This document shows, piece by piece, positions 1-19,704 of a stretch of 24,713 bases of DNA. The position numbers were made by a program, and so were the translations under genes. The stretch lies in NCBI GenBank assembly GCA_002385265.1, contig DGDD01000229.1, positions 1 to 24,713 of the forward strand. Reading direction: 5' to 3'. A model generated the notes under the pieces. It was not told the DNA's origin and did no database searches. It saw only the letters and a list, made by a program, of their open reading frames with translations. This DNA is from Chitinophagaceae bacterium UBA3961. Lineage in GTDB: Bacteria > Bacteroidota > Bacteroidia > Chitinophagales > Chitinophagaceae. Within the stretch, counting starts at the first letter, position 1. Every line of letters starts with the position of its first letter.

Positions 1-1
1 C

Positions 2-3000
2 CCGGAAGGAAACGAAGTGGACTTATTGGTGATCGAAACCAAAGCCACTGCCAAGCTTGAACGGGCAAGGACATCGCTCCGTAATTTTGTAATTAAGCGA
101 CTCAACGACAAGAATAGAGACTATGCACTAGCTGCTTTTTACAGTAAAGAAGATAATGGCGCTGACTGGCGTTTCTCATATATAAAAATAGAACACGAGA
201 GTTATAAAGATCAAAAGGGAAAGGTAAAAACCAAAAAAGAACTAACCCCTGCAAAACGCTTTTCATTCCTTGTGGGAGAACACGAACATGCCTATACTGC
301 ACAAAAGCAGCTACTGCCTGTTTTGCAGAACGATTACAGCAACCCTAATATCGAAGACCTTGAAAGCTGCTTTAGTATTGAAAAGGTTACCGATGAATTT
401 TTTGAACAGTATAAAGAATTATACCTCAAACTATCGGAGCATTTCAGTACAAATAAATCTGTGCAAAAGATTTTAGCAGCCAGTGGAATAGATAGCACAC
501 GATTTACAAAAAAACTATTAGGTCAAATTGTATTTCTTTATTTTCTTCAAAAGAAAGGCTGGTTAGGTGTACCTAAAAATGAACCCTGGGGCAAAGGCGA
601 CAAGAAGTTTATTCAATCACTTTTTGAAGAAGCAATAAATCAAAAAGAAAATTTCTTTAAAGACTATCTCCAGTATCTCTTCTACGAAGCGTTAGCAAAA
701 GCCCGTACCAATAGCCCCGATCCTGCTTACTACAAACGGTTCGATTGTAAAATACCTTTTTTAAATGGGGGTCTTTTTGAAGCCGATTACGATTGGCAAA
801 ATACCAACCTTTCCATACCCAACGATTTATTCAGGAATATTGAAAAAAATAAAGCGGGTGATGTAGGCACAGGTGTTTTGGATGTTTTTGACCGGTACAA
901 TTTCACCATAAAAGAAGATGAACCTTTAGAGAAAGAAGTGGCGGTTGACCCTGAAATGCTGGGCAAGGTATTCGAAAACATGCTGGAAATTACCGAGCGT
1001 AAAAGCAAGGGAGCATTTTATACACCCCGTGAAATTGTTCACTACATGTGCCAGGAAAGCCTGATTAATTACCTGGATAATGCAGTAAACAATACTGCGC
1101 AAAGTTATCAGGCATTGGACAGTGACCAATTAGATATGTTTCCCGGTGTTGCCAATAAAAAGGGACAGGCTAAATTTGAGATTGAACATAAAGGCAAAAC
1201 ACTTGTTCCCCTAGCAGACATTGAAACTTTTGTACGAAAGGGATTTCTTGCTACAGAAAATGACCAGGTAATTATAGAAAAGGGTAAGGAGACAAGTAGC
1301 TATAAATTTCAATTACGCGAAGCAGTACGTACACATGCAGATGAATTAGACAAACATTTAACCAGTATTAAAATCTGCGACCCTGCCATTGGTTCAGGGG
1401 CTTTCCCGGTGGGCTTATTACACGAGTTGGTAACCGCTCAAAAAGTATTACTGCCCTACCTGAGTGAAAAATACCTTGCTGAAAAGTTAAAGACGATAGA
1501 TTTAGGAAAAGCAGAATATAAAAAAGACCCAACCAAATATATTTACCGTGTTAAACGCCATGCCATACAGGAAAGTATTTATGGCGTGGATATAGATGCG
1601 TCTGCTATTGACATTGCCCGCCTTCGTTTATGGCTTTCTCTTATTGTTGACGAAGAAGATTTTTACAGTATCGAGGCATTGCCCAATTTGGATTATAAGA
1701 TTATTAAAGGAAGCAGCTTAATCGGACTGCCAGAAAAGAATCTAATTGATGATGAGGCAACAAAAAAATTAGAAAATTTAAAAGATGAGTTTTTCAAATT
1801 AACTGACGAAACAAAAAAGAAGCAACTACGTAGTAAAATAAATCAAGCAATTGATAAAGTATTGGCTACAAGTGAACAGTTTTCAGGTGTCTTTGCTGAT
1901 TTTGATTTCAAATTATTTTTTTCTGAGGTTTGGCACAAAAACAAAGGTTTCGATATCGTAATAGGAAATCCGCCTTATATATCCTATTATGGTAATAATG
2001 GTCAAGAGATTGATGATTTGACTCGCAACTATTTTAAAAATAATTATGACCATGTAAAGAAAGCAAATGACAGGATTAATAGTATGAATCTCATGACTGA
2101 AAAGGGATTAAAGATTTTAAATAAGACTGGAATACTTTCTTTTATCACGAATAAAACTTTGGCTGTATTGCCTTCTTATATTAACCTTCGTGAATATCTC
2201 TTAAAAAACCATTCAATTAGTTTTATTGTAACTAATCTTGATCCCTTTGAAGCAATTGTTGATTGCGTTGTTTTTGGCATAAATAAAGACAAGAGAAATA
2301 CAGCGCTTAAATTCTTCAAAGGACAGCTAACGGAATCAATTTCTGTGAAACAGACTGATTTTTTTAGTAATAATAAACTTGAGTTTCACGTCGGCTCCAA
2401 CAAAAAAATAATTGACAAAATTGAAAACTTTAAAAATCGTCTTGAAGAAGTACTGACAATAAATAGAGGGGTAAATATTGGCGGATGCTTTGAACATTTT
2501 CTATCTAAAGAAAAAAAAGAAGGCTATTACCCTTATTTAGGTGGAACAAGGAATATAAAAAAGTATCAGTATAAAGTGTTTGCAGATGATGGTTATTTTA
2601 AGTTTGACACAATCAAGGAAAAGAAGTTGAGAGATAAAGGAGCTAATATTGTTTTGGGTAATCCAGAACGATATATTCAACCAAGATTATTCATCCCTGA
2701 ATCTGGACAAACAATTATGGCTGCTTTGTGCAACGAACAAATTTATGGTGCGTATGGTCTTTTAGTTGGCACAGCAGCAGATAATGAAAAACTTATACTT
2801 TTTTGTGCCCTACTTAATAGCGAGTTAATTACCTATTATGCAATTGAGAAGGAAATTCTTAGAAAAGGCAATAAAGCTACGCCGCATGTAGGCGTAAGAG
2901 GTTTAAATAGTATTCCGATACCAAAATTTTCTACAGAAATAAGTAAAATATTAATAACACTAGTCGATTATGTAACGCTTCTAAAAACAATAGAAGATTC

Positions 3001-3271
3001 AGGAATTGTAATAGCTTATTTTGAAACAATTATAAATGCTTTAATTTTTGAGAGCTATTTCGCCAATGAAATAGCTTTATCTAAAAAGGCAATTTCATTG
3101 CATATAATTTCTCTAGAAAATCTACTGAAAAGTCAATCTACCGAAAAAAAATTGTCAATAATTCAATCAGAATTCAGCCGATTATACGACCCCAATCACC
3201 CTGTTCGCAATAATATAGAAACACTCGACAGTGTGGAAGAAGTAAGAATCATTAAAGAAGCTATTTTATGA
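2..3271 (+). CDS. Eco57I-class (type IIG-like) N6-adenine DNA methyltransferase, 5' end cut by window
   Basis: Predicted to methylate adenine in a specific DNA site, as part of a restriction or phage-defence system. The frame is open to base 2, so the true start lies upstream; the GTG at 17 is internal. Numbering residues from that GTG, motif I (D-P-A-I-G-S-G) is at 455-461 and the catalytic N-P-P-Y motif IV at 651-654, the arrangement of gamma-class N6-adenine methyltransferases. A long helical insert separates them, as is usual in Eco57I-type proteins. The region from about 800 to 1000 resembles a TaqI-like target-recognition domain, with an N-P-E-R-Y-I segment and a late I-P-I-P-K-F. An E-T-K triplet at 7-9 superficially resembles a nuclease ExK, but I do not claim a nuclease domain. 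The stop overlaps the ATPase start by 4 nt, so the two are translationally coupled. Base composition is AT-richer than in the metabolic genes further along. Confidence 0.88.
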   Translation, partial: PEGNEVDLLVIETKATAKLERARTSLRNFVIKRLNDKNRDYALAAFYSKEDNGADWRFSYIKIEHESYKDQKGKVKTKKELTPAKRFSFLVGEHEHAYTAQKQLLPVLQNDYSNPNIEDLESCFSIEKVTDEFFEQYKELYLKLSEHFSTNKSVQKILAASGIDSTRFTKKLLGQIVFLYFLQKKGWLGVPKNEPWGKGDKKFIQSLFEEAINQKENFFKDYLQYLFYEALAKARTNSPDPAYYKRFDCKIPFLNGGLFEADYDWQNTNLSIPNDLFRNIEKNKAGDVGTGVLDVFDRYNFTIKEDEPLEKEVAVDPEMLGKVFENMLEITERKSKGAFYTPREIVHYMCQESLINYLDNAVNNTAQSYQALDSDQLDMFPGVANKKGQAKFEIEHKGKTLVPLADIETFVRKGFLATENDQVIIEKGKETSSYKFQLREAVRTHADELDKHLTSIKICDPAIGSGAFPVGLLHELVTAQKVLLPYLSEKYLAEKLKTIDLGKAEYKKDPTKYIYRVKRHAIQESIYGVDIDASAIDIARLRLWLSLIVDEEDFYSIEALPNLDYKIIKGSSLIGLPEKNLIDDEATKKLENLKDEFFKLTDETKKKQLRSKINQAIDKVLATSEQFSGVFADFDFKLFFSEVWHKNKGFDIVIGNPPYISYYGNNGQEIDDLTRNYFKNNYDHVKKANDRINSMNLMTEKGLKILNKTGILSFITNKTLAVLPSYINLREYLLKNHSISFIVTNLDPFEAIVDCVVFGINKDKRNTALKFFKGQLTESISVKQTDFFSNNKLEFHVGSNKKIIDKIENFKNRLEEVLTINRGVNIGGCFEHFLSKEKKEGYYPYLGGTRNIKKYQYKVFADDGYFKFDTIKEKKLRDKGANIVLGNPERYIQPRLFIPESGQTIMAALCNEQIYGAYGLLVGTAADNEKLILFCALLNSELITYYAIEKEILRKGNKATPHVGVRGLNSIPIPKFSTEISKILITLVDYVTLLKTIEDSGIVIAYFETIINALIFESYFANEIALSKKAISLHIISLENLLKSQSTEKKLSIIQSEFSRLYDPNHPVRNNIETLDSVEEVRIIKEAIL

Positions 3272-4752
3272 AAATACAAAAAATCGAACTTAACAACTAC
3301 AAAGCATTCTATGGAAAGCAGCTCCTAAACGTTTCTGGAAAAAATGTATTTATCTATGGTGAAAATGGCAGTGGTAAAAGTTCGCTTTATTATGCTTTAA
3401 AAGATTTCTTTCAATCATCAATTGAAACTATTAACTTAAGTAAAGTTGAGAATATTTTTATAGAGCCTGCAAATAAGGGAAATGTATTTATTAAGGTTTC
3501 ATTTAAACCCGATAAGGACGGGAAAAAGCGTGGTAAAACATATGAATTTTCAACGGCTGTAAATGATACACGAATAGTTGGAGATACTAGTATCAGAGAT
3601 GCAAACTCTTTGAAGTCTTTTTTAACTTACAAGCATCTTTTAGATATACATCATATTAAAAGTGATAAAGAAATTGACTTGTTTAGCTTACTGGTAAAAG
3701 GTGTATTAAAGCATTTTAAATATACACTCACTGCTGGTAAGGAATTAGGCGCACTTTGGTCCGAAGTTGAAAGATTATTATCAACAGAAACTAATCGTTC
3801 CTATAATTTAATACAAAAGAAAAGAGAAGTAAATGCAGCACTGTTAGAATTCGATACAGCGTTCAATCAACTTTTTATTTCCCCTACCGCGTCAAAACCT
3901 AATCCTGAGTATTTACTTGACCATGCGAAGCCTATTTTGGAATTATTTGATAATGACATAGAATTAATTTTACAATATAAAAAAGGAAAACTTCATGATG
4001 ATTACACAGGGTTTAAAAAAGAACCGACTGTAAATATCGATTTGAAATATGCTGGCAAACCAGTGGAAAAGCCACACCTATTTTTAAATGAAGCACGTTT
4101 ATCAGCAATTGCGATTTCAATTTATTTGGGAATGATTAAACGACATCCACAACTAAAGCCATATAAAATTTTGTTTTTGGATGATATTTTTATTGGTTTA
4201 GATATATCAAACCGCCTACCGCTTCTTAAGATAATTGACACGCATTTCATCGAATATCAAATTTTTATCACAACATACGATAAGCCTTGGTATGAGTTTG
4301 TAAAAAGTTTTCTGGAAGGTAAGGCTGGCTGGGTAACAATTGAATTTTATGCTACTAAAACACATAAAGGATATGAAATACCAAGAATTGTTGACAACAG
4401 TGACTACTTAGCAAAGGCAGACCAGCACGTCAGAGAAAATGATTATAAAAGTGCAGCAGTTTATACACGAACCGCATTTGAAAGAGAGGTGCAAAAGTTC
4501 TGTGACAGAAAAAATATTCCAGTTCCATTTCACAAACAAGCTAAAAAATATACCTCTGAGAATTTTTGGAATGCAATTAAAGGGCAAGGCCATTTATTAC
4601 CACCAATGGTTACAGATATTGAACAATATCGGGATCTGGTATTGAATGCTTTTAGTCATTATAACACAGAGAAGCATGAAATTAGGAGAGAGTTAACAAG
4701 TGCGATAATTGCGATAAAGAATCTAAAAGTAACACTTGATGCAATTGTTTAA
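3268..4752 (+). CDS. SMC/RecF-like AAA (ABC-type) ATPase with C-terminal helical, HEPN-like domain
   Basis: ATPase that probably serves as sensor or motor of the defence cassette. Walker A (G-E-N-G-S-G-K-S) is at residues 31-38, an ABC-signature-like stretch (L-N-E-A-R-L-S) at 273-279, and Walker B (I-L-F-L-D-D) at 301-306 followed by G-L-D at 310-312. A sensor-like I-F-I-T-T-Y-D comes shortly after. The stretch between Walker A and the signature is short (about 230 residues), so there is no long SMC coiled coil. There is no TOPRIM domain of the OLD type after Walker B. Instead the last 110 residues are helical and end in R-D-L-V-L-N-A-F-S-H (455-464), similar to the N-x-x-S-H or R-x(n)-H signatures of HEPN/DUF4145-like domains. 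It starts inside the methyltransferase stop codon (ATGA), so both are made from one mRNA. The ATPase call is firm; the HEPN-like call is tentative. Confidence 0.85.
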   Translation: MKIQKIELNNYKAFYGKQLLNVSGKNVFIYGENGSGKSSLYYALKDFFQSSIETINLSKVENIFIEPANKGNVFIKVSFKPDKDGKKRGKTYEFSTAVNDTRIVGDTSIRDANSLKSFLTYKHLLDIHHIKSDKEIDLFSLLVKGVLKHFKYTLTAGKELGALWSEVERLLSTETNRSYNLIQKKREVNAALLEFDTAFNQLFISPTASKPNPEYLLDHAKPILELFDNDIELILQYKKGKLHDDYTGFKKEPTVNIDLKYAGKPVEKPHLFLNEARLSAIAISIYLGMIKRHPQLKPYKILFLDDIFIGLDISNRLPLLKIIDTHFIEYQIFITTYDKPWYEFVKSFLEGKAGWVTIEFYATKTHKGYEIPRIVDNSDYLAKADQHVRENDYKSAAVYTRTAFEREVQKFCDRKNIPVPFHKQAKKYTSENFWNAIKGQGHLLPPMVTDIEQYRDLVLNAFSHYNTEKHEIRRELTSAIIAIKNLKVTLDAIV

Positions 4753-4777
4753 ACTACGTAAATCTGTTTCATTGAAA

Positions 4778-4785
4778 TATTTTTG
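4778..4785 (+). promoter_or_regulatory. Possible -7 promoter element for the nuclease-like gene
   Basis: TATTTTTG matches the Bacteroidetes -7 consensus TAnnTTTG exactly and lies in the 130-nt gap before the 4883 gene. No TTTG is found 19-21 nt upstream, so support is partial. If real, the third cassette gene can be expressed independently of the first two. Confidence 0.3.
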
Positions 4786-4882
4786 ATTAATCAGACTTTA
4801 AATCGTTAGATATTACTAAATATTACCTGAGATTAATAATATAATTGGAACAATCAAAAAGCTGAATTAGAGGTTTAATATC

Positions 4883-5728
4883 ATGAATAATGTTTTATAC
4901 ATAATGGTAACAAACTGGGAGCTTCATTGGGATAAACTTGGAGCAAAATGGAATCATTCTACCTTATTTACAGTTCCAGTCATTAAGGATAACCTGGCAA
5001 ATACTACATGGCCTACGGAAGCTACTACCTTGTTTATCAAAAAAACAAAAGAAAATTCTTTTGAAAAAGCATGGCTGGGCAAAACAAAAAACTTTCGCAA
5101 AGACTCTAATAATGGTAAGCCTGCAATTCGCTTTGAAGTCACAGACTTGGTAGAAATTGATTGCCCCATTGAATACAGGAACTATACCAACGGTTGGCAT
5201 TTGAATAAATCTTTTGTGCAGGGTGAAAATATTCAATTTGCTGCTGTCATTGACAATGGTTTAACTCCCGCCTTCTTTGAACAAATGAGCAATTGTTCTT
5301 GGGAATTATTTGAGCAACACTGCTTCCATTTATTAAGAGTAATAGGCATCCATGATATTCATACACTCCCACGTCAAGCACAACAGGGTAAAGCAGATGG
5401 CTTTTTCCGCTTCCATTCCCTAACGGTAATTTATGATGCTACATTAGAAAATAATTTTGAATCAGTAAAGGAGCAACAAATAGAAAACTACATCAACCAG
5501 CTAAAAAAAGAAAAGATAGACTTTAACAAAATCAGCTATACAATAAAAAATACACAAAGACAGGTTTGGATTATTACACGGGGCAATAGTGTTCGTCTTT
5601 TAAAAACTGAAGACCACGTAAAAGTGAAAGAAGTTCCGTACACCAAACTTATTGATGTATATAACAAAAGATTGAAAGCCGAAATTGGTTCTGACGAATT
5701 ATGGGACATATTGAAAGATCTGAAATAA
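4883..5728 (+). CDS. Predicted PD-(D/E)XK-like restriction endonuclease-fold protein
   Basis: Protein of 281 residues, possibly the DNA-cleaving or target-recognising partner of the methyltransferase and ATPase. The N-terminal half (to about 125) has no fold I recognise. The C-terminal half looks like a restriction-endonuclease core: a helix (W-E-L-F-E-Q-H-C-F-H-L-L), then G-K-A-D-G-F-F with D172, then a strand ending in V-I-Y-D185-A-T187. In active enzymes the last motif is usually (D/E)-x-K; here the Lys position holds Thr, so the lysine may have migrated (K198 in the next helix is a candidate) or the site may be inactive. A further core strand (V-W-I-I-T-R-G) follows. The chosen ATG at 4883 has a purine-rich AGAGG upstream; an in-frame ATG at 4904 is possible. 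The gene lies 130 nt after the ATPase, on the same strand. Fold assignment is moderate; activity is unproven. Confidence 0.6.
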   Translation: MNNVLYIMVTNWELHWDKLGAKWNHSTLFTVPVIKDNLANTTWPTEATTLFIKKTKENSFEKAWLGKTKNFRKDSNNGKPAIRFEVTDLVEIDCPIEYRNYTNGWHLNKSFVQGENIQFAAVIDNGLTPAFFEQMSNCSWELFEQHCFHLLRVIGIHDIHTLPRQAQQGKADGFFRFHSLTVIYDATLENNFESVKEQQIENYINQLKKEKIDFNKISYTIKNTQRQVWIITRGNSVRLLKTEDHVKVKEVPYTKLIDVYNKRLKAEIGSDELWDILKDLK

Positions 5729-5837: not shown

Positions 5838-5915
5838 CCTCAAAACCGCCTTCAGCCGGAATATCAGCTTCAAATCGTCCAGTAAGGAGTTCGAGATTTG
5901 GCCAATTGGGGGCAC
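5832..5915 (-). pseudogene. Short coding-like relic (27 codons), possible 3' end of a lost mobile-element gene
   Basis: The reverse strand reads V-P-P-I-G-Q-I-S-N-S-L-L-D-D-L and then L-K-L-I-F-R-L-K-A-V-L-R-G before a TAA. The amphipathic helix-like composition and the terminator-like hairpin exactly at its stop suggest the last codons of a former gene. An in-frame stop sits immediately upstream, so nothing larger remains. I suspect a recombinase or transposase tail from its position at the edge of the defence block, but cannot identify the family from 27 residues. Confidence 0.22.
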
Positions 5916-5920
5916 TTAAA

Positions 5921-5946
5921 AAATGGCTTCCGAAAGGGAGCCATTT
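5921..5946. terminator. Strong intrinsic hairpin, bidirectional
   Basis: An 11-bp stem (AAATGGCTTCC at 5921-5931 with GGGAGCCATTT at 5936-5946, one G-T pair) closes a GAAA tetraloop, with A-residues before and T-residues after. It can stop + transcription leaving the defence cassette (about 190 nt downstream of it) and also transcription entering from the other side. Confidence 0.65.
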
Positions 5947-5999
5947 TTAGTTGTACGAATTTGATGGGTCAGTTAATACGGATAGCAGGGTTGTTCATC

Positions 6000-6497: not shown

Positions 6498-6598
6498 TTT
6501 AAAGTAAAACCGATCGTCCCACGTCTTCTACCTAAAGCAGCCAAAAAGGTAGTAAATTGGAACCGCATTCAGTCATCTTAAATCATTCGGAATCAACC

Positions 6599-7153
6599 AT
6601 GAGCGATCGAAGCAGAGAGAGATCGGTAAGTACAGCCGTTTCCAAATATGGAAAGCAGCTCTTTGCTTTTATTCGTGGGAAAGTGAACAAATTGGAAGAC
6701 GCCGAGGATATTCTGCAAGACGTATGGTACCAGTTCAGCAGATTGGCCAATGTAGATGAATTGGAAAGCGTGAGTGGCTGGTTGTATTCGGTAAGTAGGA
6801 ATAAAATTACAGACCTCTACCGAAAGAAAAAGCCCGATTTGATTGATGACTTTTCTCAGGAGGATGAAGACGGAGCGCTCCAACTCCGGGAAATGCTTTT
6901 GATGGACAATAACAATCATCCAGAAAAAGAATATTTCCGTGAGCTGATCTGGGAAGAGTTGTTAAAAGCGTTGAATGAGCTACCTGAAAAGCAGCGAAAG
7001 GTATTTGTTCTAAATGAAATGGAAGACAGAACACTGCAGTCGATCGCCGATGAAGAAGGTGAAAATTTAAAAACCATCATCAGCCGTAAATTATACGCAG
7101 TAAAATTTCTTCGCAAAAAATTAGAACCATTGTATAACGAATTATATATCTAA
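6599..7153 (+). CDS. ECF-type sigma-70 family RNA polymerase sigma factor
   Basis: Alternative sigma factor of 184 residues that directs RNA polymerase to a specific regulon. Region 2 lies at roughly residues 15-90 and carries the typical A-E-D-I-L-Q-D-V core-binding helix and a following W-L-Y-S-V-S-R-N-K-I -10-recognition helix. Region 4 is at about 125-180, with L-P-E-K-Q-R-K-V-F and a helix-turn-helix (T-L-Q-S-I-A-D-E-E-G). There is no region 1 or 3, so it belongs to the extracytoplasmic-function group. The ATG at 6599 is preferred over an in-frame TTG at 6557 because family similarity begins after it. The stop is followed after only 4 nt by a membrane-protein gene, so the two form an operon. 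No standard anti-sigma (FecR or zinc anti-sigma) is adjacent. Confidence 0.9.
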   Translation: MSDRSRERSVSTAVSKYGKQLFAFIRGKVNKLEDAEDILQDVWYQFSRLANVDELESVSGWLYSVSRNKITDLYRKKKPDLIDDFSQEDEDGALQLREMLLMDNNNHPEKEYFRELIWEELLKALNELPEKQRKVFVLNEMEDRTLQSIADEEGENLKTIISRKLYAVKFLRKKLEPLYNELYI

Positions 7154-8457: not shown

Positions 8458-9240
8458 CTAGACCTTCGAAATAAACCGATACAGGTAAGGAGCTTTATAG
8501 GCCTTACCTGTATATTTTTTCTCCAATCGTTCCAGAATGTTCATGCTCAGCATTTTTCTTTGAAAATTGGTGCGATCGAATGCTTTCTGGTATACGGCTT
8601 CATACAATTTTTGCAATTCACCCATGGTAAAGGTTTCATTCAATAAATTGAAGCCTACTAGTTTTTGATCGAGGTCTATTTGCAAGCGCTCAATGGCTTT
8701 CTTAACTATGAGTGCGTGATCGAGATAGAGCTTTGGAAGTTTCTTAACATCCACCCATTTCATTTCTGTTACAAACTCTTCGCTCAGTAATTCAACATTG
8801 GCTTCATCGATCAGTGCGTAGTAACAAACCGAGATGAATCGCTGATCAAACCAATTCTTTACATCCCTATCTTTTGCTAATTCCTGGAACCACTCTCCCA
8901 TCATGTGACCTTGAGATCGATTGACGGCACCCGTAGTATAAAACTGCTCCAAATAAATATTACCAATACCCGATCTTTCTTTCAAAATTCTCAAAGCCGC
9001 ATCGTCTAATTCTTCTGTTTTCTCAATAAACCCTCCCGGTAAACAATAAAAAGGTATATCACCGTATCTAATCAGCAGGACTTTTAATTCATCGTCGTGG
9101 AAACTAAAAATAACCGTGTCAATAGAAACCCCCGGCATGTACTTTTCACGTACTTCTGCCATGTTTACATCGATGGATCTCACCAACGATTTCATTCGCT
9201 CCTTTTCCCTTCCCTTTCCCTTTCCGCCCTTGGTTGCCAT
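8458..9240 (-). CDS. Nudix-fold winged-helix transcriptional regulator (NrtR/AraR-like)
   Basis: Predicted repressor or activator that senses a nucleotide or sugar derivative. Residues about 37-170 form a Nudix domain. The Nudix box starts at G70 and keeps E76, R84, E88 and G91, but the paired R-E and E-E become R84-I85 and E88-R89. Such loss of catalytic acids is typical of Nudix proteins turned regulators (NrtR; AraR in Bacteroides). Residues about 185-260 are the characteristic C-terminal winged helix (F-T-M-G-E-L-Q-K-L-Y, then R-K-M-L). The Lys/Gly/Arg-rich first 15 residues may be dispensable; Met16 is an alternative start. The gene is divergent from the secreted-protein/GH3 operon, with a strong palindrome between them, so control of glycoside use is likely. 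The ligand is unknown. Confidence 0.85.
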   Translation of the reverse strand: MATKGGKGKGREKERMKSLVRSIDVNMAEVREKYMPGVSIDTVIFSFHDDELKVLLIRYGDIPFYCLPGGFIEKTEELDDAALRILKERSGIGNIYLEQFYTTGAVNRSQGHMMGEWFQELAKDRDVKNWFDQRFISVCYYALIDEANVELLSEEFVTEMKWVDVKKLPKLYLDHALIVKKAIERLQIDLDQKLVGFNLLNETFTMGELQKLYEAVYQKAFDRTNFQRKMLSMNILERLEKKYTGKAYKAPYLYRFISKV

Positions 9241-9375
9241 GCTACTTTGTATCTAGTTGATATTCAATTAATTATTCGATAATTGCGCCGAAACTTGAGC
9301 GCCCACTTCATCAAAAATGTCGAAAAAAGCCTGCCCTGCAAAACTTTTTTACTCGCAATCTACAAAAATAAGTAT

Positions 9376-9398
9376 CATTGTGTCATAATGACTCAATG
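9376..9398. promoter_or_regulatory. 23-bp near-perfect palindrome, likely operator of the Nudix-type regulator
   Basis: CATTGTGTCAT (9376-9386), one central A, then ATGACTCAATG (9388-9398); the arms match at 10 of 11 positions. It lies between the divergent regulator gene and the secreted-protein/GH3 genes and overlaps a weak -7-like TATCATTG (9373-9380), which fits a repressor site. NrtR-family regulators bind palindromes of about 21 bp. Confidence 0.55.
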
Positions 9399-9454
9399 AA
9401 GGGTTGCAGCTTCCTTGGTCATTCCATCATTTAATAACGAATCAAATTTTCTGT

Positions 9455-9850
9455 ATGAAAAAAATCTCCTTCCTGCTTACCATTCTTATGGTGAGTGTTT
9501 TTTCAATGAATGCCTTTTCGCAAAGTTCACCCGCTCCTGCTCCTGCAGATTTCTTTGCCGGTAAATGGAATGTTGTAATCAAGAATACACCACAAGGTGA
9601 TGCGAAATTGGTTTTCAATTTCACCAAGAAAGATGGTGCTTTAAGCGGAGTAGTAACCGATTCTGCGGGTACCGAAATTTCAAAAATGAGCAATTTGGAA
9701 GTGAAAGAAAATGAGGTAACCGTTTCTTTCTCAGCACAAGGCTTCGATTTAACCATTACTCTTACTAAAAAAGACGAGGATCATTTAACCGGCATGTTGA
9801 TGAACATGTTTGAAGTAGAAGCCATTCGCATCAAAGAAGAGAAAAAATAA
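9455..9850 (+). CDS. Small secreted protein with beta-rich (lipocalin-like) body
   Basis: Exported protein of 131 residues; function unknown. A classical signal peptide (M-K-K-I-S-F-L-L to A-F-S-Q, about 22 residues) is followed by a Pro/Ala linker and alternating strands (W-N-V-V-I-K, A-K-L-V-F-N-F, L-S-G-V-V-T, V-T-V-S-F, D-L-T-I-T-L) that suggest a small beta-barrel. The ATG at 9455 is chosen because it begins the signal peptide; an upstream TTG at 9404 would add an unlikely leader. It lies 41 nt before the GH3 gene and is probably co-transcribed with it from the promoter under the palindrome at 9376-9398. It may assist or sense the substrate of the glycosidase, which is inference from position. 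Confidence 0.7.
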   Translation: MKKISFLLTILMVSVFSMNAFSQSSPAPAPADFFAGKWNVVIKNTPQGDAKLVFNFTKKDGALSGVVTDSAGTEISKMSNLEVKENEVTVSFSAQGFDLTITLTKKDEDHLTGMLMNMFEVEAIRIKEEKK

Positions 9851-9891
9851 AATAACTATTGGTATAGCAATCGTTAATTCATTTATCACGT

Positions 9892-12237
9892 ATGAAAAAA
9901 ATTCTGTTAGTACTGTTTGCCGCATTGGTAACAGGAACCATGTTCGCGCAAGCACCTCAATTTGGCAAAGCACCTTTGAAAGAAGTGATCAAAGCCATGA
10001 CCGTCGAGGAAAAAGCAAAAATTGTAGTGGGTAAAGGCTTTATCATCGCCGGTTTGAATATGGGACAAACCGACAAAACGCCCGATAAAATTGAAGGCGT
10101 TTCGGGACATACTGTTCCCATTGCACGATTGGGCATTCCCTCTGCAGCTTTGGCTGATGGACCTTCCGGAGTGCACCGCTTTATGACGGGTAAAGATTCT
10201 GCCAACGGCTATTTCACTACTGCATTTCCTATTGGAACATTATTGGCCTCCAGTTGGGACACCGCCTTAGTGCGTAAAGTAGGAACTGCATTCGGCGCAG
10301 AAATCAAGGCCTATGGCATTGATTTTATATTAGGACCAGGCATGAATATTCACCGCAATCCATTAGGAGGTAGAAATTTCGAATATTATTCAGAAGATCC
10401 GTTGGTGACGGGAGAAATAGCCGCGGCAATAATTAAGGGCATTCAATCACAAGGTGTGGGTGCAACAGTAAAACACTTTGCTGCGAATAATCAAGAAACC
10501 AACCGTAATTCTGTTAATACCATCGTAAGTGAACGCACCCTTCGTGAAATCTACTTGCGTGCTTTCGAAATTGCGATCAAAAAATCGCAGCCTTGGGCCG
10601 TAATGAGTTCTTACAATTTGATCAACGGAACTTTTGCATCAGAAAACAGTGATCTGTTGAAGACTGTATTAAAAGACGAATGGGGTTACAAAGGATTTGT
10701 GATGACCGATTGGTTTGGAGGCAAAGATCCCGTTGCGCAAATGAAAGCGGGGAACCATTTGTTGATGCCCGGAACAGAAGCGCAAGTAAAAACAATTGTA
10801 GCTGCTGTAAAAAAAGGAGAATTGGCTGAATCCATTCTTGATGAAAACGTGGAAGCCATTCTAACAGTGTTATTGAAAACACCTGTGGCGAAAAACTATG
10901 CATTCAACAATAAGCCTGATTTAAAAAAGGCTGCGCAGGTTTCAAGAGAAGCCGCTGCAGAGGGAATGGTATTGCTGAAAAATGCACAGGGAAGTTTGCC
11001 CTTTGCAAAAACAACCGGTTCTGTGGCCTTATTCGGAAACAGAGGGTATGAGATGATCACAGGCGGAACAGGAAGTGGTGAGGTAAGTTATGAACACGCT
11101 GTTTCTTTAGCAGAAGGATTGAAGAATGCAGGGTATGCTACCGACGCTTCTTTGGCGTTGAAATACAGCAGTTACATGAGTGACTATCTGAAAAAGCATC
11201 CGAAGAAATCTTTTGTTCAGGAGTTCATGAACCCTACCCCACCTGCTGAAGAATTATCGCTCAGTGATGAAGAAATTGCAACGGCGGCTACCAACAATCA
11301 AACCGCTATCTTTTATTTATCAAGAAATGCCGGAGAAGGAAAGGATAGAAAAGTAGAGAACGACTATCAACTTTCAGAAACAGAAATAAAGAATTTTGAA
11401 AAAATTGCTGCTGCATTTCATGCTAAGGGCAAAAGAGTGATTGCGGTAGTCAATGCAGGAGGAGTGGTTGATCTGAGTTTATTGAAAGAAAAAGCAGACG
11501 CTATCTTATTGGCTTGGCAACCCGGGAACGAAGGAGGCAATGCTATTGCCGACATCATTAGTGGCAAAGTGAACCCTTCCGGAAAACTAGCCACCAGTTT
11601 TCCAGGTAATTATAAAAAAGAACCTACGGCTCCTTACTTCCCAGGAAAAGAGTTTCCTGAAAAGGCTACTGTTGGTTTGATGGGAATGAAAACCGTTCCG
11701 GCAGAAGTAACCTATACTGAAGGCATTTACATGGGATACCGTTATTTCAACACCTTCAATGTAAAACCCTTGTTTGAATTTGGCTATGGTCAATCGTACA
11801 CCAGTTTCAAATACAGCGGTGTTAAACTTAGTGCACCTGATTTCGACGGTAGCATCAAAGCAACGGTTACCATTACCAATACCGGAAAGAAAGCCGGCAA
11901 AGAAGTGGTGCAATTGTATTTGGGAGCTCCGAATTCAAAACTCGACAAGCCGGTTTCGGAATTGAAAGGTTTTGCAAAAACAAAGCTCTTGCAACCCGGT
12001 GCTTCGCAAACCATCACCTTTACATTGAAACCGGAGGACCTCGCCTCTTTTGATACAGAGCGTTCTTCTTGGATAGCTGATGCAGGAAAATATACCATCA
12101 GCATTGGTGCCTCTAGTTTGGACATCAAGTCAAGTGCTAATTTCCAATTGGCAAAGGAATTGATTGTAGAGAAATTGCATGCGGCTTTGAAACCACAGGG
12201 AGTGGTGGACGAGTTGAAAGTGAAAAAAGGGTTTTAA
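9892..12237 (+). CDS. bglX: Glycoside hydrolase family 3 beta-glucosidase, periplasmic (BglX-like)
   Basis: Hydrolyses terminal beta-linked glucose (possibly xylose) from oligosaccharides in the periplasm. The protein has 781 residues, close to the usual BglX length. The signal peptide is residues 1-20, ending F-A-Q. The GH3 N-terminal barrel follows, with L-A-D-G-P-S-G-V-H-R, the substrate-binding K-H-F-A-A-N-N segment, and the nucleophile Asp273 in F-V-M-T-D-W. The GH3 C-terminal alpha/beta domain is at about 350-590 (G-M-V-L-L-K-N and W-Q-P-G-N-E-G-G-N-A). A fibronectin-III-like domain occupies about 660-755 (V-V-Q-L-Y-L and E-L-K-G-F). No PA14 insert is seen. It follows a small secreted protein by 41 nt and converges on galactokinase. 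True substrate specificity cannot be read from sequence. Confidence 0.92.
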   Translation: MKKILLVLFAALVTGTMFAQAPQFGKAPLKEVIKAMTVEEKAKIVVGKGFIIAGLNMGQTDKTPDKIEGVSGHTVPIARLGIPSAALADGPSGVHRFMTGKDSANGYFTTAFPIGTLLASSWDTALVRKVGTAFGAEIKAYGIDFILGPGMNIHRNPLGGRNFEYYSEDPLVTGEIAAAIIKGIQSQGVGATVKHFAANNQETNRNSVNTIVSERTLREIYLRAFEIAIKKSQPWAVMSSYNLINGTFASENSDLLKTVLKDEWGYKGFVMTDWFGGKDPVAQMKAGNHLLMPGTEAQVKTIVAAVKKGELAESILDENVEAILTVLLKTPVAKNYAFNNKPDLKKAAQVSREAAAEGMVLLKNAQGSLPFAKTTGSVALFGNRGYEMITGGTGSGEVSYEHAVSLAEGLKNAGYATDASLALKYSSYMSDYLKKHPKKSFVQEFMNPTPPAEELSLSDEEIATAATNNQTAIFYLSRNAGEGKDRKVENDYQLSETEIKNFEKIAAAFHAKGKRVIAVVNAGGVVDLSLLKEKADAILLAWQPGNEGGNAIADIISGKVNPSGKLATSFPGNYKKEPTAPYFPGKEFPEKATVGLMGMKTVPAEVTYTEGIYMGYRYFNTFNVKPLFEFGYGQSYTSFKYSGVKLSAPDFDGSIKATVTITNTGKKAGKEVVQLYLGAPNSKLDKPVSELKGFAKTKLLQPGASQTITFTLKPEDLASFDTERSSWIADAGKYTISIGASSLDIKSSANFQLAKELIVEKLHAALKPQGVVDELKVKKGF

Positions 12238-12275
12238 CTAATGGGTGAATTTGTTGAGTGGGGAATGAGTTAACC

Positions 12276-13427
12276 TCAACTTAATAGAGTCGTTCCATTT
12301 TCAATACTAACGTGATGCACGGTTAAGGCTTTTTGCATCTGTTTTTGATACGACTCGGAGAGGGTGTTTACGATTTCGTGAACACCTTCTTCTTTTATGA
12401 TATTGATGGTGCAACCACCAAAGCCGCCACCCATCATCCTAGAGCCTAACACATGGGGATGATTCTTCACGGCTTCCACTAAAAAATCGAGTTCCGGGCA
12501 ACTTACTTCGTATTCTTTACTAAGTCCCTCATGAGTCCGAAACATTTTCTTCCCAAATGCTTCAATGTTACCTGTTTCCAAATCATCACATCCGGATAAT
12601 AAACGGATATTTTCTTCCACCACGAATTTACAGCGCTGATAAATGAGCGCGTCTTTTGGCAATACGAGCTGTTTGAGTTGATCCAAACTAATGTCTCGTA
12701 ATGATCTTACTTCAGGATATACTTCTTGCACCCAGGCCACGCCGGTTTCACATTGTTCTCTTCGAACATTGTATTCGGATGAAGCGAGGGAATGTTTCAC
12801 ATTGGTATCGAACAATACAATTTTATAGCCATTCAATTGTAAAGGCTTGTATTCATATTCGAGGGATTTGCAATCGAGTTTGATCACATGGTCTTTCTTT
12901 CCAAAACCACTGGCAAACTGATCCATGATACCACATTTTACACCGGCGTATTCATGTTCTGCTTTTTGAGACAGTTTCACCAAATCGATTCTTGAAAGTG
13001 GATGTTCAAAAGCGGTACTCAATGCCATTGCCATGGCGCATTCTATTGCTGCGGAAGAACTGAGTCCGGCACCTACCGGCACATCGGAGCTTAAAGCTGC
13101 TTCAAATCCGGACAGCGCAAATCCTGCTTTTTGAAATTGTGCAACCACTCCAAGAAGGTAGTTGGGCCAAGAAGGTTGGGATTGTGGTGCAAGATCTTGA
13201 AGTTCAATTTCAAATCGTTGCTCCCAATCGGCCGAATGCAGTACTATACGATTATCGGTTCTTTTATTAAGGACGATATAAGCTGCTTTATCAATAGCTG
13301 CCGGTAGAACAAAGCCTTCGTTGTAATCGGTATGTTCACCGATGAGATTGATACGGCCGGGAGATTTTACCAGAACGGATTTTTCTATGAGATAAGGCTT
13401 AAGTCTTTGCGGAAAAGAATCGGTCAT
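12276..13427 (-). CDS. galK: Galactokinase
   Basis: Phosphorylates alpha-D-galactose with ATP to galactose-1-phosphate, the first committed step of the Leloir pathway, in the cytoplasm. The protein has 383 residues, normal for the family. The galactokinase signature G-R-I-N-L-I-G-E-H-T-D-Y-N is at residues 24-36, the GHMP ATP-binding loop P-V-G-A-G-L-S-S-S-A-A at 117-127, and the catalytic Asp169 in G-I-M-D-Q. A late G-G-G-F-G-G motif completes the GHMP fold. The ATG at 13427 is preferred: the frame extends 47 codons further upstream, but that part has no similarity and runs through the promoter-like TATATTTG. It converges on the GH3 gene with 38 nt between stops. No galT, galE or galM is in the window. 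Confidence 0.95.
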   Translation of the reverse strand: MTDSFPQRLKPYLIEKSVLVKSPGRINLIGEHTDYNEGFVLPAAIDKAAYIVLNKRTDNRIVLHSADWEQRFEIELQDLAPQSQPSWPNYLLGVVAQFQKAGFALSGFEAALSSDVPVGAGLSSSAAIECAMAMALSTAFEHPLSRIDLVKLSQKAEHEYAGVKCGIMDQFASGFGKKDHVIKLDCKSLEYEYKPLQLNGYKIVLFDTNVKHSLASSEYNVRREQCETGVAWVQEVYPEVRSLRDISLDQLKQLVLPKDALIYQRCKFVVEENIRLLSGCDDLETGNIEAFGKKMFRTHEGLSKEYEVSCPELDFLVEAVKNHPHVLGSRMMGGGFGGCTINIIKEEGVHEIVNTLSESYQKQMQKALTVHHVSIENGTTLLS

Positions 13428-13444
13428 AAGTAAGAAATAAAATG

Positions 13445-13452
13445 CAAATATA
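13445..13452 (-). promoter_or_regulatory. Possible -7 element of galactokinase promoter
   Basis: The reverse strand reads TATATTTG, an exact TAnnTTTG match, 17 nt before the chosen ATG. No TTTG is found at the expected -33 distance, so support is partial. If used, it excludes the longer reading frame. Confidence 0.35.
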
Positions 13453-13610
13453 TCTAAGAGTGTTGATAAGCGTACTATCCCCAAGGTATTGACTTGTAAT
13501 ATATTATACATAATCAAACTCGCCGTACTATTTTTATTCATTGATAACCAACAAGATGCGGTTAACATACTTAAACTAAAATTCCTACGTTATTAAACAA
13601 ATCCCTACCA

Positions 13611-14696
13611 GTGAAAACACGTCTACTATTATCAGGCTTGTTATTGGCAGCTACTGTATCTGCCCAAAGAAATGTGGACTTAGACAAGTTCTCCATTTCA
13701 GCTCAATACCGAGCTCTTCCCCAAATACAAATTGATACCACTTACCGAACATTCAATGTAGAAATCGAGACAACGCGATTGATGCAGCCATTGCTGAATA
13801 CGATCAGTCCGGAAAAATCGGTTTGGATTGATGGTTGGAGAAAATTAGACCGGGATGGTCATATCCGAATTAAAATAAGATTCGAAGACATTTTACCGGA
13901 AAGTGTTTCTACTAAAGAACGTATTGAGACGATCAAAAACAGAAACGGCCAAATAACAGGTACGCGCACTTACTATTCGCAAGAAGTGATCTATACTTTT
14001 CAAGCCAATGCAATCTTAGAAGATTATAGAGGCATGAACTTAGAAGAAAGAATGCTCGCCAATAGAAATAATAAAATGGTATACCGAAGTCCTGAGTTTG
14101 CAATTAAAACTGTTGCTGACGGATACTTCGCATTGAATTCTATTTCTATTGCACAAGATTTATTTAGAAGAAATGTTCAAAATGCGGTGAACAATTTAAG
14201 TAATCAGCTTACAAGAGATTACGGTTATCAAACTGTTACAAGTACCGATATCATGTGGATCGTAGGAAGCAGAAAAGATGCTGAATACGATGATCACAGA
14301 AAAGCATTCCAAATTGTAAGTGATGCATTCTTTAGAATGAGCGCCGATAAGCCTACCGATGAAATCAGAGAAATGCTCCAACCGGCTATTGACTACTTCA
14401 ATAAAATAAAAAGAGTATATAATGGAAAAAGCAAGCGGGAGCGCAAGCTTCGTTATGCGAGCTACTACAACTTAGCAGTAATTTACTATTATTTAGACGA
14501 TCCTATGGCTATGATGAATGAAGCGAAAGGCCTTCGTTTGAATGATTATGACACCGGTGATGCTACCGGTTTTGAACACTCGGCAACCAATTTGAAGAAT
14601 GTTCTTCAAATCAACAATATGAATACTCGTCACTTCCCTATTGACATTACTAAGTTCAAAGGGCCGTATGAACGTACAGACGTAACGAGTAAATAA
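13611..14696 (+). CDS. Secreted protein of unknown function
   Basis: Exported protein of 361 residues that I do not recognise as a named family. A signal peptide (M-K-T-R-L-L-L-S-G to V-S-A-Q, residues 1-19) leads into a beta-rich half with T-Y-R-T-F-N-V-E-I and W-I-D-G-W-R-K-L-D. A helical second half (from about 235) contains a tetratricopeptide-like pair (Y-A-S-Y-Y-N-L-A-V-I-Y-Y-Y-L, then A-M-M-N-E-A-K-G-L). The start is GTG at 13611, the only start that keeps the whole signal peptide. It is divergent from galactokinase and followed by a strong terminator, so it is probably a single-gene unit. Confidence 0.75.
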   Translation: MKTRLLLSGLLLAATVSAQRNVDLDKFSISAQYRALPQIQIDTTYRTFNVEIETTRLMQPLLNTISPEKSVWIDGWRKLDRDGHIRIKIRFEDILPESVSTKERIETIKNRNGQITGTRTYYSQEVIYTFQANAILEDYRGMNLEERMLANRNNKMVYRSPEFAIKTVADGYFALNSISIAQDLFRRNVQNAVNNLSNQLTRDYGYQTVTSTDIMWIVGSRKDAEYDDHRKAFQIVSDAFFRMSADKPTDEIREMLQPAIDYFNKIKRVYNGKSKRERKLRYASYYNLAVIYYYLDDPMAMMNEAKGLRLNDYDTGDATGFEHSATNLKNVLQINNMNTRHFPIDITKFKGPYERTDVTSK

Positions 14697-14719
14697 GTTT
14701 AGGATAATCAGTTATGGTT

Positions 14720-14748
14720 AGGGGTGGCCTTGGTCGGCACCCCTTTTT
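14720..14748 (+). terminator. Intrinsic terminator after the 13611 gene
   Basis: AGGGGTG (14720-14726) pairs with CACCCCT (14738-14744), followed by TTTTT. It sits 24 nt past the stop codon. Confidence 0.85.
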
Positions 14749-14763
14749 AATTTTTAAGCACCC

Positions 14764-14797
14764 AAAAAAAATGGGGCCGCAGCCACCTGCGTACCCC
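14764..14797 (-). terminator. Orphan reverse-strand terminator hairpin
   Basis: GGGG (14773-14776) with CCCC (14794-14797) encloses CGCAG-CCAC-CTGCG (14778-14791). Eight A-residues lie on its left, so on the reverse strand the hairpin is followed by T8. No reverse-strand gene lies upstream of it; 14798-15051 holds nothing else I can identify. Confidence 0.6.
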
Positions 14798-15051
14798 AAC
14801 TAACCTAACCTATGACCATTGTGAGAAATCTAAATTCAATTAAACTATATCAGTACTTAAATGAATGATGCCGATACAATTCATTTGGTTGGGCAGCTTC
14901 CAAAAAATTAGGAATACGAAAGGGGAGAATTGTAATAGACTTAACTGTTTCTAAGAATACTTTCTAAATAAATTTAAAATCAGATCTGGGTCTGCCATTG
15001 AATGGTTGAGCCCTGAAATTCATTTATTTTAGCGAAATAATTTTTTCTAAA

Positions 15052-16734
15052 ATGAATAAGAAAATAGCACTTGGTTGTTTGTTGGTGTTTGAGTTCCTTT
15101 TTGCAAATGCACAAAAATCAGACATCGCCGTACCTAGTGCCGTGCAATACCAGTGGCAAGAACGTGAACGCATCATGTTCGTGCATTTTGGCGTAGCTAC
15201 ATGGACCGGCAACGAATACGATGAAACAGGAAAATTTGATATCAGTCGGTTGAATCCTTCAAAGCTGAACACCGACCAATGGTGTGAAGTGGCGAAATCT
15301 TGGGGTGCGAAAGAAATCATTTTTGTAGCGAAACATGTGGGTGGATTTTGTTGGTGGCCTACAAAAACCACCGAATACTGTGTACGCAATATTCCTTGGA
15401 AAAATGGCAAAGGCGATTTGATGAAAGAAGTAGCCGCTTCTTGCAAGAAATATGGAATTAAGATGGGCGTGTACATCTATCCGGGCGACGTAGCCTATGG
15501 AGCCGGTATTGGAAGCGGAGGCAAAACAAAAGATCCTAGTTTACAAGAAGCCTATAATAAAGTGTTTCGTCAACAATTAACAGAAGTTCTGACAAACTAT
15601 GGCGAAATGGCTGAGGTTTGGTTTGATGGAAACTGTGTCGTAGAAGTGGGCGATATATTAAAGAAGTATGCTTCAAAAGCAACGATCTTTCAAAGTCCTT
15701 ATGCAAGCTTGCGTTGGCCGGGTACTGAATCGGGCAAGCTCAGTTACCCGGTTTGGAATACGGTTCCCTCCGGTAGATTGAAATTGGGATTGGCCACGCA
15801 GTACGATGATACTCCTGATGGTGATGCTTGGGCGCCACTAGAAGCCGATGCGCCCTTGTATGATCATTATTGGTTTTGGAGTAAGGAAAAAGAAAAGAAA
15901 CGCAAGTCTTTAGAAGAGCTGATTGATATGTACTACAAATCTGTAGGCTATGGAGGGAATTTATTGATCAACTCTTGTCCCGACACCACCGGTTTAATAG
16001 TTCCCGATGATGTATCCTTGTATCGAGCTTTCGGAGCTGAGCTACAAAAGCGTTTTGAAAAGCCGGTAGCACAACTCAAATTACCCATTGCCATCAACCC
16101 GATTTTACATTTCCAAAAGCCAACTGCCATCAATCATATCGTATTGGAAGAACAGTATCAATACGGTCATAGAATCAGGGCCTACACCATTGAAGCAAAA
16201 GTGAATGGGAAATGGGTGGAAATAGCGAAAGGAGAATCGGTGGGACGCAAAAAAATCGAAGCATTCAAAACAATCACTACAACGGACATTCGAATTAATG
16301 TAACCAAAAACAAATTGGCCCCTAAGTGGCGATCGGTTTCAGCCTATCATGTTTCGAATTTTGAACCCAGTGTAACCATTCAGAACGACCCCGAGTGGAA
16401 AGTGTGCGGCAGCTATGATACTAAGACCTTTAAAAATGGCGCAGACACCTTGGTATTGAATTTGGATTCCTTCATCACCAAACCCGGTCAGTACGAAATT
16501 GCCATGGTAGCCGATGTTGCCATTACCGGCACCTATATAGTAGAAACCTATCTTGAATTTGATGGAGAAAACACCCAACAGGAATACTTACAGAAAACGG
16601 GACACAGTTCTTTCAATATCAATAGAACCGCCCAAATAGACCGCAACAGTCATACAAAGCTCACACTCTATATGAAATCGGACAATGAAGTGTTTCAGAA
16701 TAGAGGGGTGTTTAAGATACGAGCAAGACGATAG
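15052..16734 (+). CDS. Secreted GH29 alpha-L-fucosidase with C-terminal carbohydrate-binding-like domain
   Basis: Releases alpha-linked L-fucose from glycans, probably in the periplasm or at the cell surface. The protein has 560 residues. The signal peptide is about residues 1-20, ending A-N-A-Q. The GH29 barrel covers about 30-335: M-F-V-H-F-G near 42-47, A-K-H-V-G-G-F-C-W-W near 98 (the usual H-H-D-G-F is H-V-G-G-F here), and the nucleophile Asp192 in V-W-F-D-G. N-L-L-I-N-S and P-D-T-T-G mark the end of the barrel. Residues about 350-445 resemble a discoidin/F5-8-type galactose-binding domain (I-N-H-I-V-L-E-E, then W-V-E-I-A). The final 110 residues form another beta-rich region. The pattern fits the GH29-B subgroup (alpha-1,3/1,4), but this is uncertain. 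Confidence 0.9.
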   Translation: MNKKIALGCLLVFEFLFANAQKSDIAVPSAVQYQWQERERIMFVHFGVATWTGNEYDETGKFDISRLNPSKLNTDQWCEVAKSWGAKEIIFVAKHVGGFCWWPTKTTEYCVRNIPWKNGKGDLMKEVAASCKKYGIKMGVYIYPGDVAYGAGIGSGGKTKDPSLQEAYNKVFRQQLTEVLTNYGEMAEVWFDGNCVVEVGDILKKYASKATIFQSPYASLRWPGTESGKLSYPVWNTVPSGRLKLGLATQYDDTPDGDAWAPLEADAPLYDHYWFWSKEKEKKRKSLEELIDMYYKSVGYGGNLLINSCPDTTGLIVPDDVSLYRAFGAELQKRFEKPVAQLKLPIAINPILHFQKPTAINHIVLEEQYQYGHRIRAYTIEAKVNGKWVEIAKGESVGRKKIEAFKTITTTDIRINVTKNKLAPKWRSVSAYHVSNFEPSVTIQNDPEWKVCGSYDTKTFKNGADTLVLNLDSFITKPGQYEIAMVADVAITGTYIVETYLEFDGENTQQEYLQKTGHSSFNINRTAQIDRNSHTKLTLYMKSDNEVFQNRGVFKIRARR

Positions 16735-17025
16735 ATTGAAAGCAGCTTACTATGCTAAGTAACAAAAACGATGGTTTTCCGGCCCCGGCAGTTATGCTGC
16801 AATAAGACTTTCCTCTTATTGACATTAAAATACAATTCTTAAGAAAAAACGAAATCCAAAATCAACTGATAACCATTGAGTAGTGCCAAACGCTCCAATC
16901 GTAAGCTTTTTGTTAATTAGGTTCTTTCTTTTAAAACAGAGAAAAACCCAGATTTAGCTCTAAGCATTTCCTTCTATATTCGAAAAATTCCAATCAAATT
17001 AAAATTGAAAATATAAGAAACGGAG
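16735..17025. other. Intergenic stretch without a gene
   Basis: Only a weak 7-bp inverted repeat AATAAGA / TCTTATT (16801-16807, 16814-16820) is visible, possibly a weak terminator for the fucosidase gene. A poor -7-like TATATTCG lies at 16975-16982. Confidence 0.3.
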
Positions 17026-17059: not shown

Positions 17060-17067
17060 TTAGCATC

Positions 17068-19017: not shown

Positions 19018-19074
19018 AACGCAGTAAGTCAATTTTTACATAGTTTTTCAGGGATCACTTTGTTCACTCCGACT

Positions 19075-19104: not shown

Positions 19105-19121
19105 GACTATTATAGAAGTTC

Positions 19122-19685: not shown

Positions 19686-19704
19686 GATTTTTAATTTTAG
19701 ATAA

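What the first reader, a model, noticed from the sequence alone, without database searches (positions are those of the whole stretch)
2..5728. Three-gene putative defence cassette: adenine methyltransferase, SMC-like ATPase, REase-fold protein
An Eco57I-class methyltransferase is fused by a 4-nt overlap to an ATPase with Walker A, an ABC-like signature and Walker B, and is followed on the same strand by a predicted restriction-endonuclease fold. Classic type IIG systems need no ATPase, and BREX, DISARM, Septu or Gabija gene sets do not match this order. It may be a distinct ATP-assisted restriction or phage-sensing system. Only the right part is visible; genes upstream of base 1 could change the picture.
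Basis: partly seen in the sequence, partly recalled or inferred. Interest (0 to 1): 0.75.

Follow-up and report, generated by a model that had tools for sequence, protein, structure and literature searches.

The report
Helicase–methyltransferase–ATPase restriction operon, cut short

Summary
The three ORFs exist: an Eco57I-class adenine methyltransferase (g1, 2-3271, 5' end lost at the contig edge), a RecF/SMC-type ATPase (g2, 3268-4752, 4-nt overlap) and a nuclease-fold protein (g3, 4883-5728). The cassette as drawn is not the unit. Contig C92 of the same genome ends in 55 nt matching the window's first 55 at 53 positions; it holds the missing start of g1 and, just upstream, a PLD-nuclease/SNF2 helicase. 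In 395 genomes of the phylum, all 17 other genomes with close g1 relatives also have the helicase (found in 40 of 394), on the same contig in 16. g2 is a recurrent, optional third gene (methyltransferase upstream in 8 of 9 other loci). g3 was not near g1/g2 in any locus seen; its model is an EVE/YTH-like domain plus a PD-(D/E)xK nuclease, a described type IV architecture. Best reading: an ATP-dependent restriction-modification-like system: g1 modifies and specifies, the PLD-SNF2 helicase cuts, g2 is clamp or sensor with a perhaps HEPN-like tail. BREX, Hma, Pbe, Gabija and Septu criteria were not met; DISARM was not fully tested. No experiment was done.

The parts
1..55 (+). left end of the window = left end of its contig; 53 of 55 nt match the right end of contig C92 of the same genome, which carries the start of g1 and the PLD-SNF2 helicase (L062 7858-11163)
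   Evidence: mismatches at positions 22 and 34; best other ungapped 55-nt match in C92 is 28 of 55
2..3271 (+). g1: Eco57I-class N6-adenine methyltransferase with TaqI-like target-recognition domain; 5' end missing (probable start codon at L062 11163)
3268..4752 (+). g2: RecF/SMC-head ABC-type ATPase (residues 1-380) with a helical C-terminal domain (380-494), possibly DUF4145/HEPN-like
4883..5728 (+). g3: predicted EVE/YTH-like (PUA fold) domain (2-113) + PD-(D/E)xK nuclease fold (123-281); neighbour, probably an independent type IV enzyme
5912..5960 (+). very stable terminator-like hairpin about 190 nt after g3 (5921-5948, ending in a T run); possible end of the transcript
   Evidence: -19.9 kcal/mol, z -5.05

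Best explanation
g1 and g2 are genes two and three of an ATP-dependent restriction-modification-like operon: PLD(HKD)-SNF2 helicase / Eco57I-class methyltransferase with its own target-recognition domain / ABC-type ATPase with a helical, perhaps DUF4145/HEPN-like tail. Inferred action: g1 reads a short site and puts N6-methyladenine on the host's copies. On unmodified incoming DNA g1 recruits the SNF2 motor, which translocates on ATP while its N-terminal PLD domain cuts. g2, present in a subset of loci, binds DNA through its SMC/RecF-like head and acts as clamp, sensor or licensing switch. Shown here: gene order, domains, linkage across genomes, exchange of the recognition domain. Inferred: adjacency of C92 and the window, methylation, translocation, cutting and the role of g2. 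g3 is a separate neighbouring nuclease that probably reads a modified base (type IV logic).
For: C92 ends in the start of g1 (L062 11163-11417) and carries the helicase just before it, 1-nt overlap of stop and start; contig ends match at 53 of 55 nt. Helicase domains: SNF2 E 9.1e-16, PLDc_2 E 6.3e-7; HAKVY...GSSN from residue 158, also in all 7 relatives checked for it. Linkage: 17 of 17 other genomes with g1 at E<=1e-60 (395 searched) also hold the helicase at E<=1e-60 (40 of 394 others); hypergeometric 3e-19, an overstatement because genomes are related (6 of 17 are one genus). Same contig in 16 of 17. g2: methyltransferase just upstream in 8 of 9 other loci; on a Nostoc plasmid a g2 relative again overlaps a TaqI-like recognition gene by 4 nt. 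Recognition-domain exchange: g1 of L038 and L040 are 95% identical in the catalytic core but 45% in the recognition domain.
Against: No activity was tested. The junction rests on a 55-nt overlap with 2 mismatches in a 304-contig genome. g1 itself may still cut: its own N-terminus keeps an ExK (VIETK). g2 is not found at E<=1e-30 in 13 of the 17 close g1 genomes (G448 keeps a remnant), and 3 of 9 g2 copies are interrupted or fragments, so it is not essential. 23 of 40 helicase genomes have no g1 relative at the cut-off (three of them, G506, G534, G616, have a more distant one). The Nostoc plasmid shows no gene named helicase in the 12 kb upstream, and in the Thiospirochaeta plasmid (25% identity) the gene directly upstream of the g2 relative is a hypothetical protein, not a methyltransferase. 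Only 2-3 candidates per genome were scored, so absences are soft.
Confidence: 0.66

Rival explanations
1. g1 is a stand-alone type IIG restriction enzyme-methyltransferase that cuts through its own N-terminal PD-(D/E)xK domain; helicase and ATPase are passengers of the defence island.
For: PADLOC model REase_MTase_IIG matches at 603 bits; the N-terminus has D-x(n)-ExK in this genome.
Against: The helicase accompanies g1 in 17 of 17 other genomes. The ExK is intact in only 5 of 17 aligned N-termini, this genome's included; relatives without it still have the helicase next door.
Confidence: 0.18
2. g2 is a guard: an ATPase-gated HEPN-like RNase that stalls or kills the cell when a phage blocks the restriction complex, as PrrC and RloC do (recalled) and as PARIS is described to do (PMC12839542 passages). 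This is compatible with the best explanation and concerns g2 alone.
For: DUF4145 matches 43 of 96 homologs at E<=0.05 (best 1.7e-4) and HEPN 2 of 96; two of 8 isolated tails match DUF4145 or HEPN at E 0.001-0.002. R401, N460 and H464 are unchanged in 126 of 126. An optional, often broken gene fits an accessory guard.
Against: The window's own g2 does not match DUF4145 or HEPN. The usual HEPN motif R-x(4-6)-H (recalled) is not there: R455 stands 8 residues before H464 and is kept in 124 of 126, and the residue before N460 is hydrophobic. No HEPN chain came up in the profile search of solved structures. The tail was not folded alone.
Confidence: 0.27
3. g1-g2-g3 is one functional cassette, with g3 as the effector nuclease of the ATPase.
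For: Same strand, 130 nt from g2, strong hairpin only after g3, so co-transcription is possible. ATPase-nuclease pairs exist (Gabija, PARIS, Septu).
Against: g3 absent from all 20 fetched g1/g2 loci (17 with downstream sequence to look at), and g1, g2 and helicase absent from all 4 g3 loci seen.
Confidence: 0.08

Closest known systems
ATP-dependent restriction-modification (types I, III, ISP; definitions recalled)
   Same: methyltransferase + target recognition + SF2 motor + nuclease; exchangeable recognition domain
   Different: nuclease is PLD-type, fused to a SNF2 helicase in its own gene; recognition domain fused to the methyltransferase; extra ABC-type ATPase in some loci
PADLOC candidate C3a139 'HKD+Snf2' and PADLOC REase_MTase_IIG model PDLC03596
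   Same: the related helicase of L040 matches C3a139 at 198 bits (this genome's own helicase was not run); g1 matches PDLC03596 at 603 bits
   Different: separate single-gene models there; here the two genes are consistent neighbours, at times with g2
CxC-ABC ATPase/DndE systems (PbeABCD)
   Same: HKD nuclease fused to an SF2 helicase, an ABC ATPase, in some a cytosine methylase (PMC10853773 passages)
   Different: g2 has a single Cys (412), so no CxC hook; no DndE recognised among the few proteins scanned; the methylase is Eco57I class
Hma / DUF499-centred BREX-related systems
   Same: helicase + methyltransferase + ATPase; type 2 has an HKD-SNF2 helicase (PMC8565338 and PMC12839542 passages)
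   Different: the ATPase there is DUF499, not found in this genome
EVE-PD-(D/E)xK type IV restriction enzymes (for g3)
   Same: EVE-like reader + PD-(D/E)xK nuclease, an architecture described in PMC7641849 section 9
   Different: no Pfam EVE match in 28 family members, Thr where the catalytic Lys is usual; 5 of 28 members match a cold-shock domain

Membership tests
Type IIG restriction enzyme (g1) | adenine methyltransferase and target-recognition domain in one chain | tested here: met
   Eco57I E 3.5e-28, TaqI_C 2.2e-8; NPPY, DPAIGSGAF
Type IIG restriction enzyme (g1) | own PD-(D/E)xK nuclease in the same chain | tested here: inconclusive
   ExK present in this genome's copy, intact in 5 of 17 aligned N-termini
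Type IIG restriction enzyme (g1) | works without ATPase or helicase partners | not testable with these tools
   co-occurrence with a helicase in 17 of 17 other genomes argues against it
ATP-dependent RM (type I-like) | methyltransferase with specificity module and SF2 motor-nuclease in one operon | tested here: met
   seen directly in relatives; in this genome across a contig break
ATP-dependent RM (type I-like) | ATP-driven cleavage of unmodified DNA | not testable with these tools
   needs biochemistry
BREX | PglZ beside the methyltransferase | tested here: not met
   the one PglZ match in the genome is on contig C23, a 518-aa protein whose N-terminus looks like a response-regulator receiver by eye (PorX type, recalled)
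Hma / DUF499 BREX-related | DUF499 ATPase | tested here: not met
   no PF04465 match in the genome; 1 of 14 control genomes rings
CxC-ABC/DndE (Pbe) | CxC zinc hook in the ATPase | tested here: not met
   single cysteine in g2
Gabija | TOPRIM domain in the ATPase protein (recalled) | tested here: not met
   no TOPRIM family among the 15 Pfam matches of g2 at E<=1; best GajA model 24.9 bits over residues 1-79
Septu | HNH nuclease PtuB next to PtuA (recalled) | tested here: not met
   the next gene is g3, modelled as PD-(D/E)xK; best PtuA model 25.7 bits over residues 1-100 of g2
DISARM | DrmA, DrmB, DrmC genes | tested here: inconclusive
   none recognised among the window and C92 proteins scanned with Pfam; genome not searched for them, C92 not scanned with PADLOC
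HEPN RNase (g2 tail) | R-x(4-6)-H motif (recalled) | tested here: not met
   R455-x8-H464; N460-x3-H464 unchanged in 126 of 126
HEPN fold (g2 tail) | helical HEPN/DUF4145 domain | tested here: inconclusive
   DUF4145 in 43 of 96 homologs at E<=0.05, best 1.7e-4, but not in the window's g2; tail not folded alone
EVE-PD-(D/E)xK type IV enzyme (g3) | PUA-superfamily reader domain | tested here: inconclusive
EVE-PD-(D/E)xK type IV enzyme (g3) | PD-(D/E)xK nuclease fold | tested here: met

The most novel reading that the evidence does not exclude
A widespread restriction system in which an Eco57I-class 'type IIG' protein is really the modification/specificity subunit of a separate PLD-SNF2 helicase-nuclease, watched by an ATPase with a divergent HEPN-like tail. 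When a phage disables the restriction complex, the ATPase switches to an RNA- or cell-directed response: a further, independently evolved restriction guard beside PrrC/RloC and PARIS.
Probability: 0.2. Interest if true: 0.72.

Novelty: new variant of a known kind. Interest (0 to 1): 0.45.

Why it matters
If right, a family that annotation models call a lone type IIG enzyme is the specificity half of a multi-gene, ATP-driven restriction machine, so such systems are being misread gene by gene. The optional ATPase attached to many of these operons, with its conserved R/N/H tail, is a testable candidate for a clamp or a restriction guard.

Tried and rejected
BREX: the only PglZ match in the genome is a 518-aa protein on another contig. 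Hma/BREX-related: no DUF499. Pbe/CxC: one cysteine in g2. g3 as obligate partner: rejected by neighbourhoods. Solved relatives by sequence: none for g2 at E<=0.001; none credible for the g2 tail (best E 0.33) or for g3 (best E 0.25); for g1 only methyltransferase matches. No HEPN chain is among the listed structural rows for g2, but those rows cover residues 1-380, so the tail is untested by structure. Viral contigs: 72 pattern hits, none a relative of g2. Phage records: none for g2. Plasmids: 3 records for g2, none for g3; of the 3, Nostoc has the 4-nt overlap, Thiospirochaeta does not have a methyltransferase directly upstream, and the Prevotella record has no annotation there and was not analysed. 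A right-hand copy of the tRNA-Leu end: only short or A/T-rich shared words. Rfam: nothing in the window at gathering scores. Sigma-70 promoter scan around g3: 8 found, 7.1 expected. (31 genomes of the phylum, 1 match, already known) added nothing.

Literature: seen as passages PMC8565338, PMC12839542, PMC10853773, PMC2292703, PMC12458937, PMC12715929, PMC7641849 with its section 9 whole; all else as search listings with abstract starts. Searches listed no paper that, from what I saw, names PLD-SNF2 helicase + Eco57I-class methyltransferase + this ATPase as a system. Krishnan et al. 2020 (NAR, PMC7544218), on ABC ATPases in conflict systems, is not held and may describe it.

Full report

What probably lies upstream. 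The helicase of a relative (L040) found one strong match in the window's own genome, on contig C92 (two further matches at E 1e-3 to 1e-4 are weak). C92 is 11,417 bases long. Its last 55 bases match the first 55 of the window at 53 positions, while the best match elsewhere in C92 is 28 of 55. C92 ends with the missing start of g1 (85 residues, the last 18 repeating the window's first 18 with one substitution) and, overlapping its start codon by 1 nt, a 1101-residue protein with PLD-like and SNF2/helicase-C domains. Before that stand AbiEi and AbiEii, then a large serine recombinase whose frame runs over a tRNA-Leu gene. This looks like an integrated defence island, though no right-hand attachment site was found. 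The join is an inference from the overlap; I did not build it.

Linkage. In a sample of 395 genomes of the phylum (unnamed; Bacteroidota by inference), g1 relatives at E<=1e-60 occur in 18, the own genome included, and the helicase in 41. All 17 other g1 genomes are among the 40 other helicase genomes (p 3e-19 if genomes were independent, which they are not: six belong to one genus). Only two candidates per genome were scored, so both tallies are lower bounds. Fifteen of the 17 neighbourhoods were laid out: in 14 the helicase is upstream on the same strand, directly in 10 and with one or two ORFs of 90 aa or more between in 4. In the fifteenth (G498) g1 runs off its contig and the helicase sits at the end of another contig that ends in the start of a g1; no end overlap was found there. 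For the other two (G447, G546) I fetched the stretches but did not lay them out; the coordinates put the helicase upstream on the same strand and contig. Conversely, 23 of 40 helicase genomes have no g1 relative at this cut-off; three of them (G506, G534, G616) have a more distant one next to the helicase, and the other 20 were not examined.

g2 is found at E<=1e-30 in 9 other genomes. A methyltransferase ORF lies just upstream in 8 (with a 101-aa ORF between in L036; cut by the contig start in L050); the ninth (G486) is a fragment without one. Seven of the 9 have the helicase. Only 4 of the 17 close g1 genomes have g2 at this cut-off, with a remnant in G448. In G430 and G463 g2 carries a stop. 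So g2 is recurrent but optional. On a Nostoc plasmid a g2 relative overlaps a 338-aa TaqI-like recognition gene by 4 nt, with no gene named helicase in the 12 kb before it. Database relatives at about 60% identity carry names such as Desulfatiglandales, Methylococcaceae and Chlorobium (best 120 listed), which suggests horizontal spread.

In L040 g2 is followed by a 1018-aa protein with UvrD-like helicase and ankyrin domains, which matches GajB and related models at 37-42 bits at most. ORFs of the same length stand after g2 in L038 and after the g2 fragment in L051 (not compared). In that genus the operon may thus have a further gene, and a link to Gabija-like helicases is not excluded there. 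The window has nothing of the kind after g2.

Specificity exchange. g1 of L038 and L040 are 95% identical in the catalytic core and 45% in the recognition domain; the window's g1 is 54-59% identical to five relatives, all of one genus, in the core and 23-25% in the recognition domain. This is the pattern of a specificity subunit under exchange.

Who cuts. The helicase has HAK...GSSN, as do the seven relatives checked for it. The N-terminus of g1 has an ExK in this genome, but it is intact in 5 of 17 aligned N-termini. I therefore favour the PLD-SNF2 protein as the nuclease and g1 as modification/specificity subunit, without excluding a cutting g1.

What g2 does. The tail (380-494) is helical, with parts at low confidence. 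DUF4145 matches 43 of 96 homologs at E<=0.05 (that table gives no positions, but isolated tails match too, 2 of 8). The window's own g2 does not match it. R401, N460 and H464 are unchanged in 126 of 126 aligned sequences, R455 in 124 and S463 in 123. The standard HEPN motif spacing is not met. A clamp or sensor is the cautious reading; a guard RNase is the bolder one.

Known or new. From what I saw of searches, no paper names this gene set. Hma is described with an m5C methyltransferase and a DUF499 ATPase; Pbe/CxC systems share the HKD-SF2 helicase and an ABC ATPase but have a CxC hook and DndE. One relevant paper could not be read. I rate it a new variant of ATP-dependent restriction-modification rather than a new kind.

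Noticed in passing
L062 (contig C92) 3008-7821: tRNA-Leu(CAG) overlapped by the frame of a large serine recombinase, then an AbiEi/AbiEii pair just before the helicase: the operon sits in what looks like a mobile defence island.
   Followed up: partly
G000 C92/C301 and G498 C147/C124: Two assemblies from different families both break at nearly the same codons of g1; a variable or recombining stretch, or chance.
   Followed up: no
L038, L050, L051 (g2 relatives): g2 is interrupted or reduced in 3 of 9 other genomes; in L038 helicase and methyltransferase stay open. This fits an accessory or costly gene.
   Followed up: partly
L040 10879-13935; also ORFs of the same length in L038 and L051: A 1018-aa UvrD-like helicase with ankyrin repeats follows g2 in L040, weakly GajB-like.
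   Followed up: partly
window 5921-5948: Very stable terminator-like hairpin that the consensus scan did not list.
   Followed up: partly
window 6557-7153: Sigma-70 region 2 and region 4 protein of 198 aa, ECF-like.
   Followed up: no
window 8458-22026: Sugar-use genes: NrtR/AraR-like Nudix regulator (8458-9240), GH3 glycosidase (9892-12237), galactokinase-like GHMP kinase (12276-13568), alpha-L-fucosidase (15052-16734), TonB-dependent receptor (19705-22026).
   Followed up: no
L049 9549-12494: A second Eco57I-type methyltransferase follows the g2 relative in G616.
   Followed up: no
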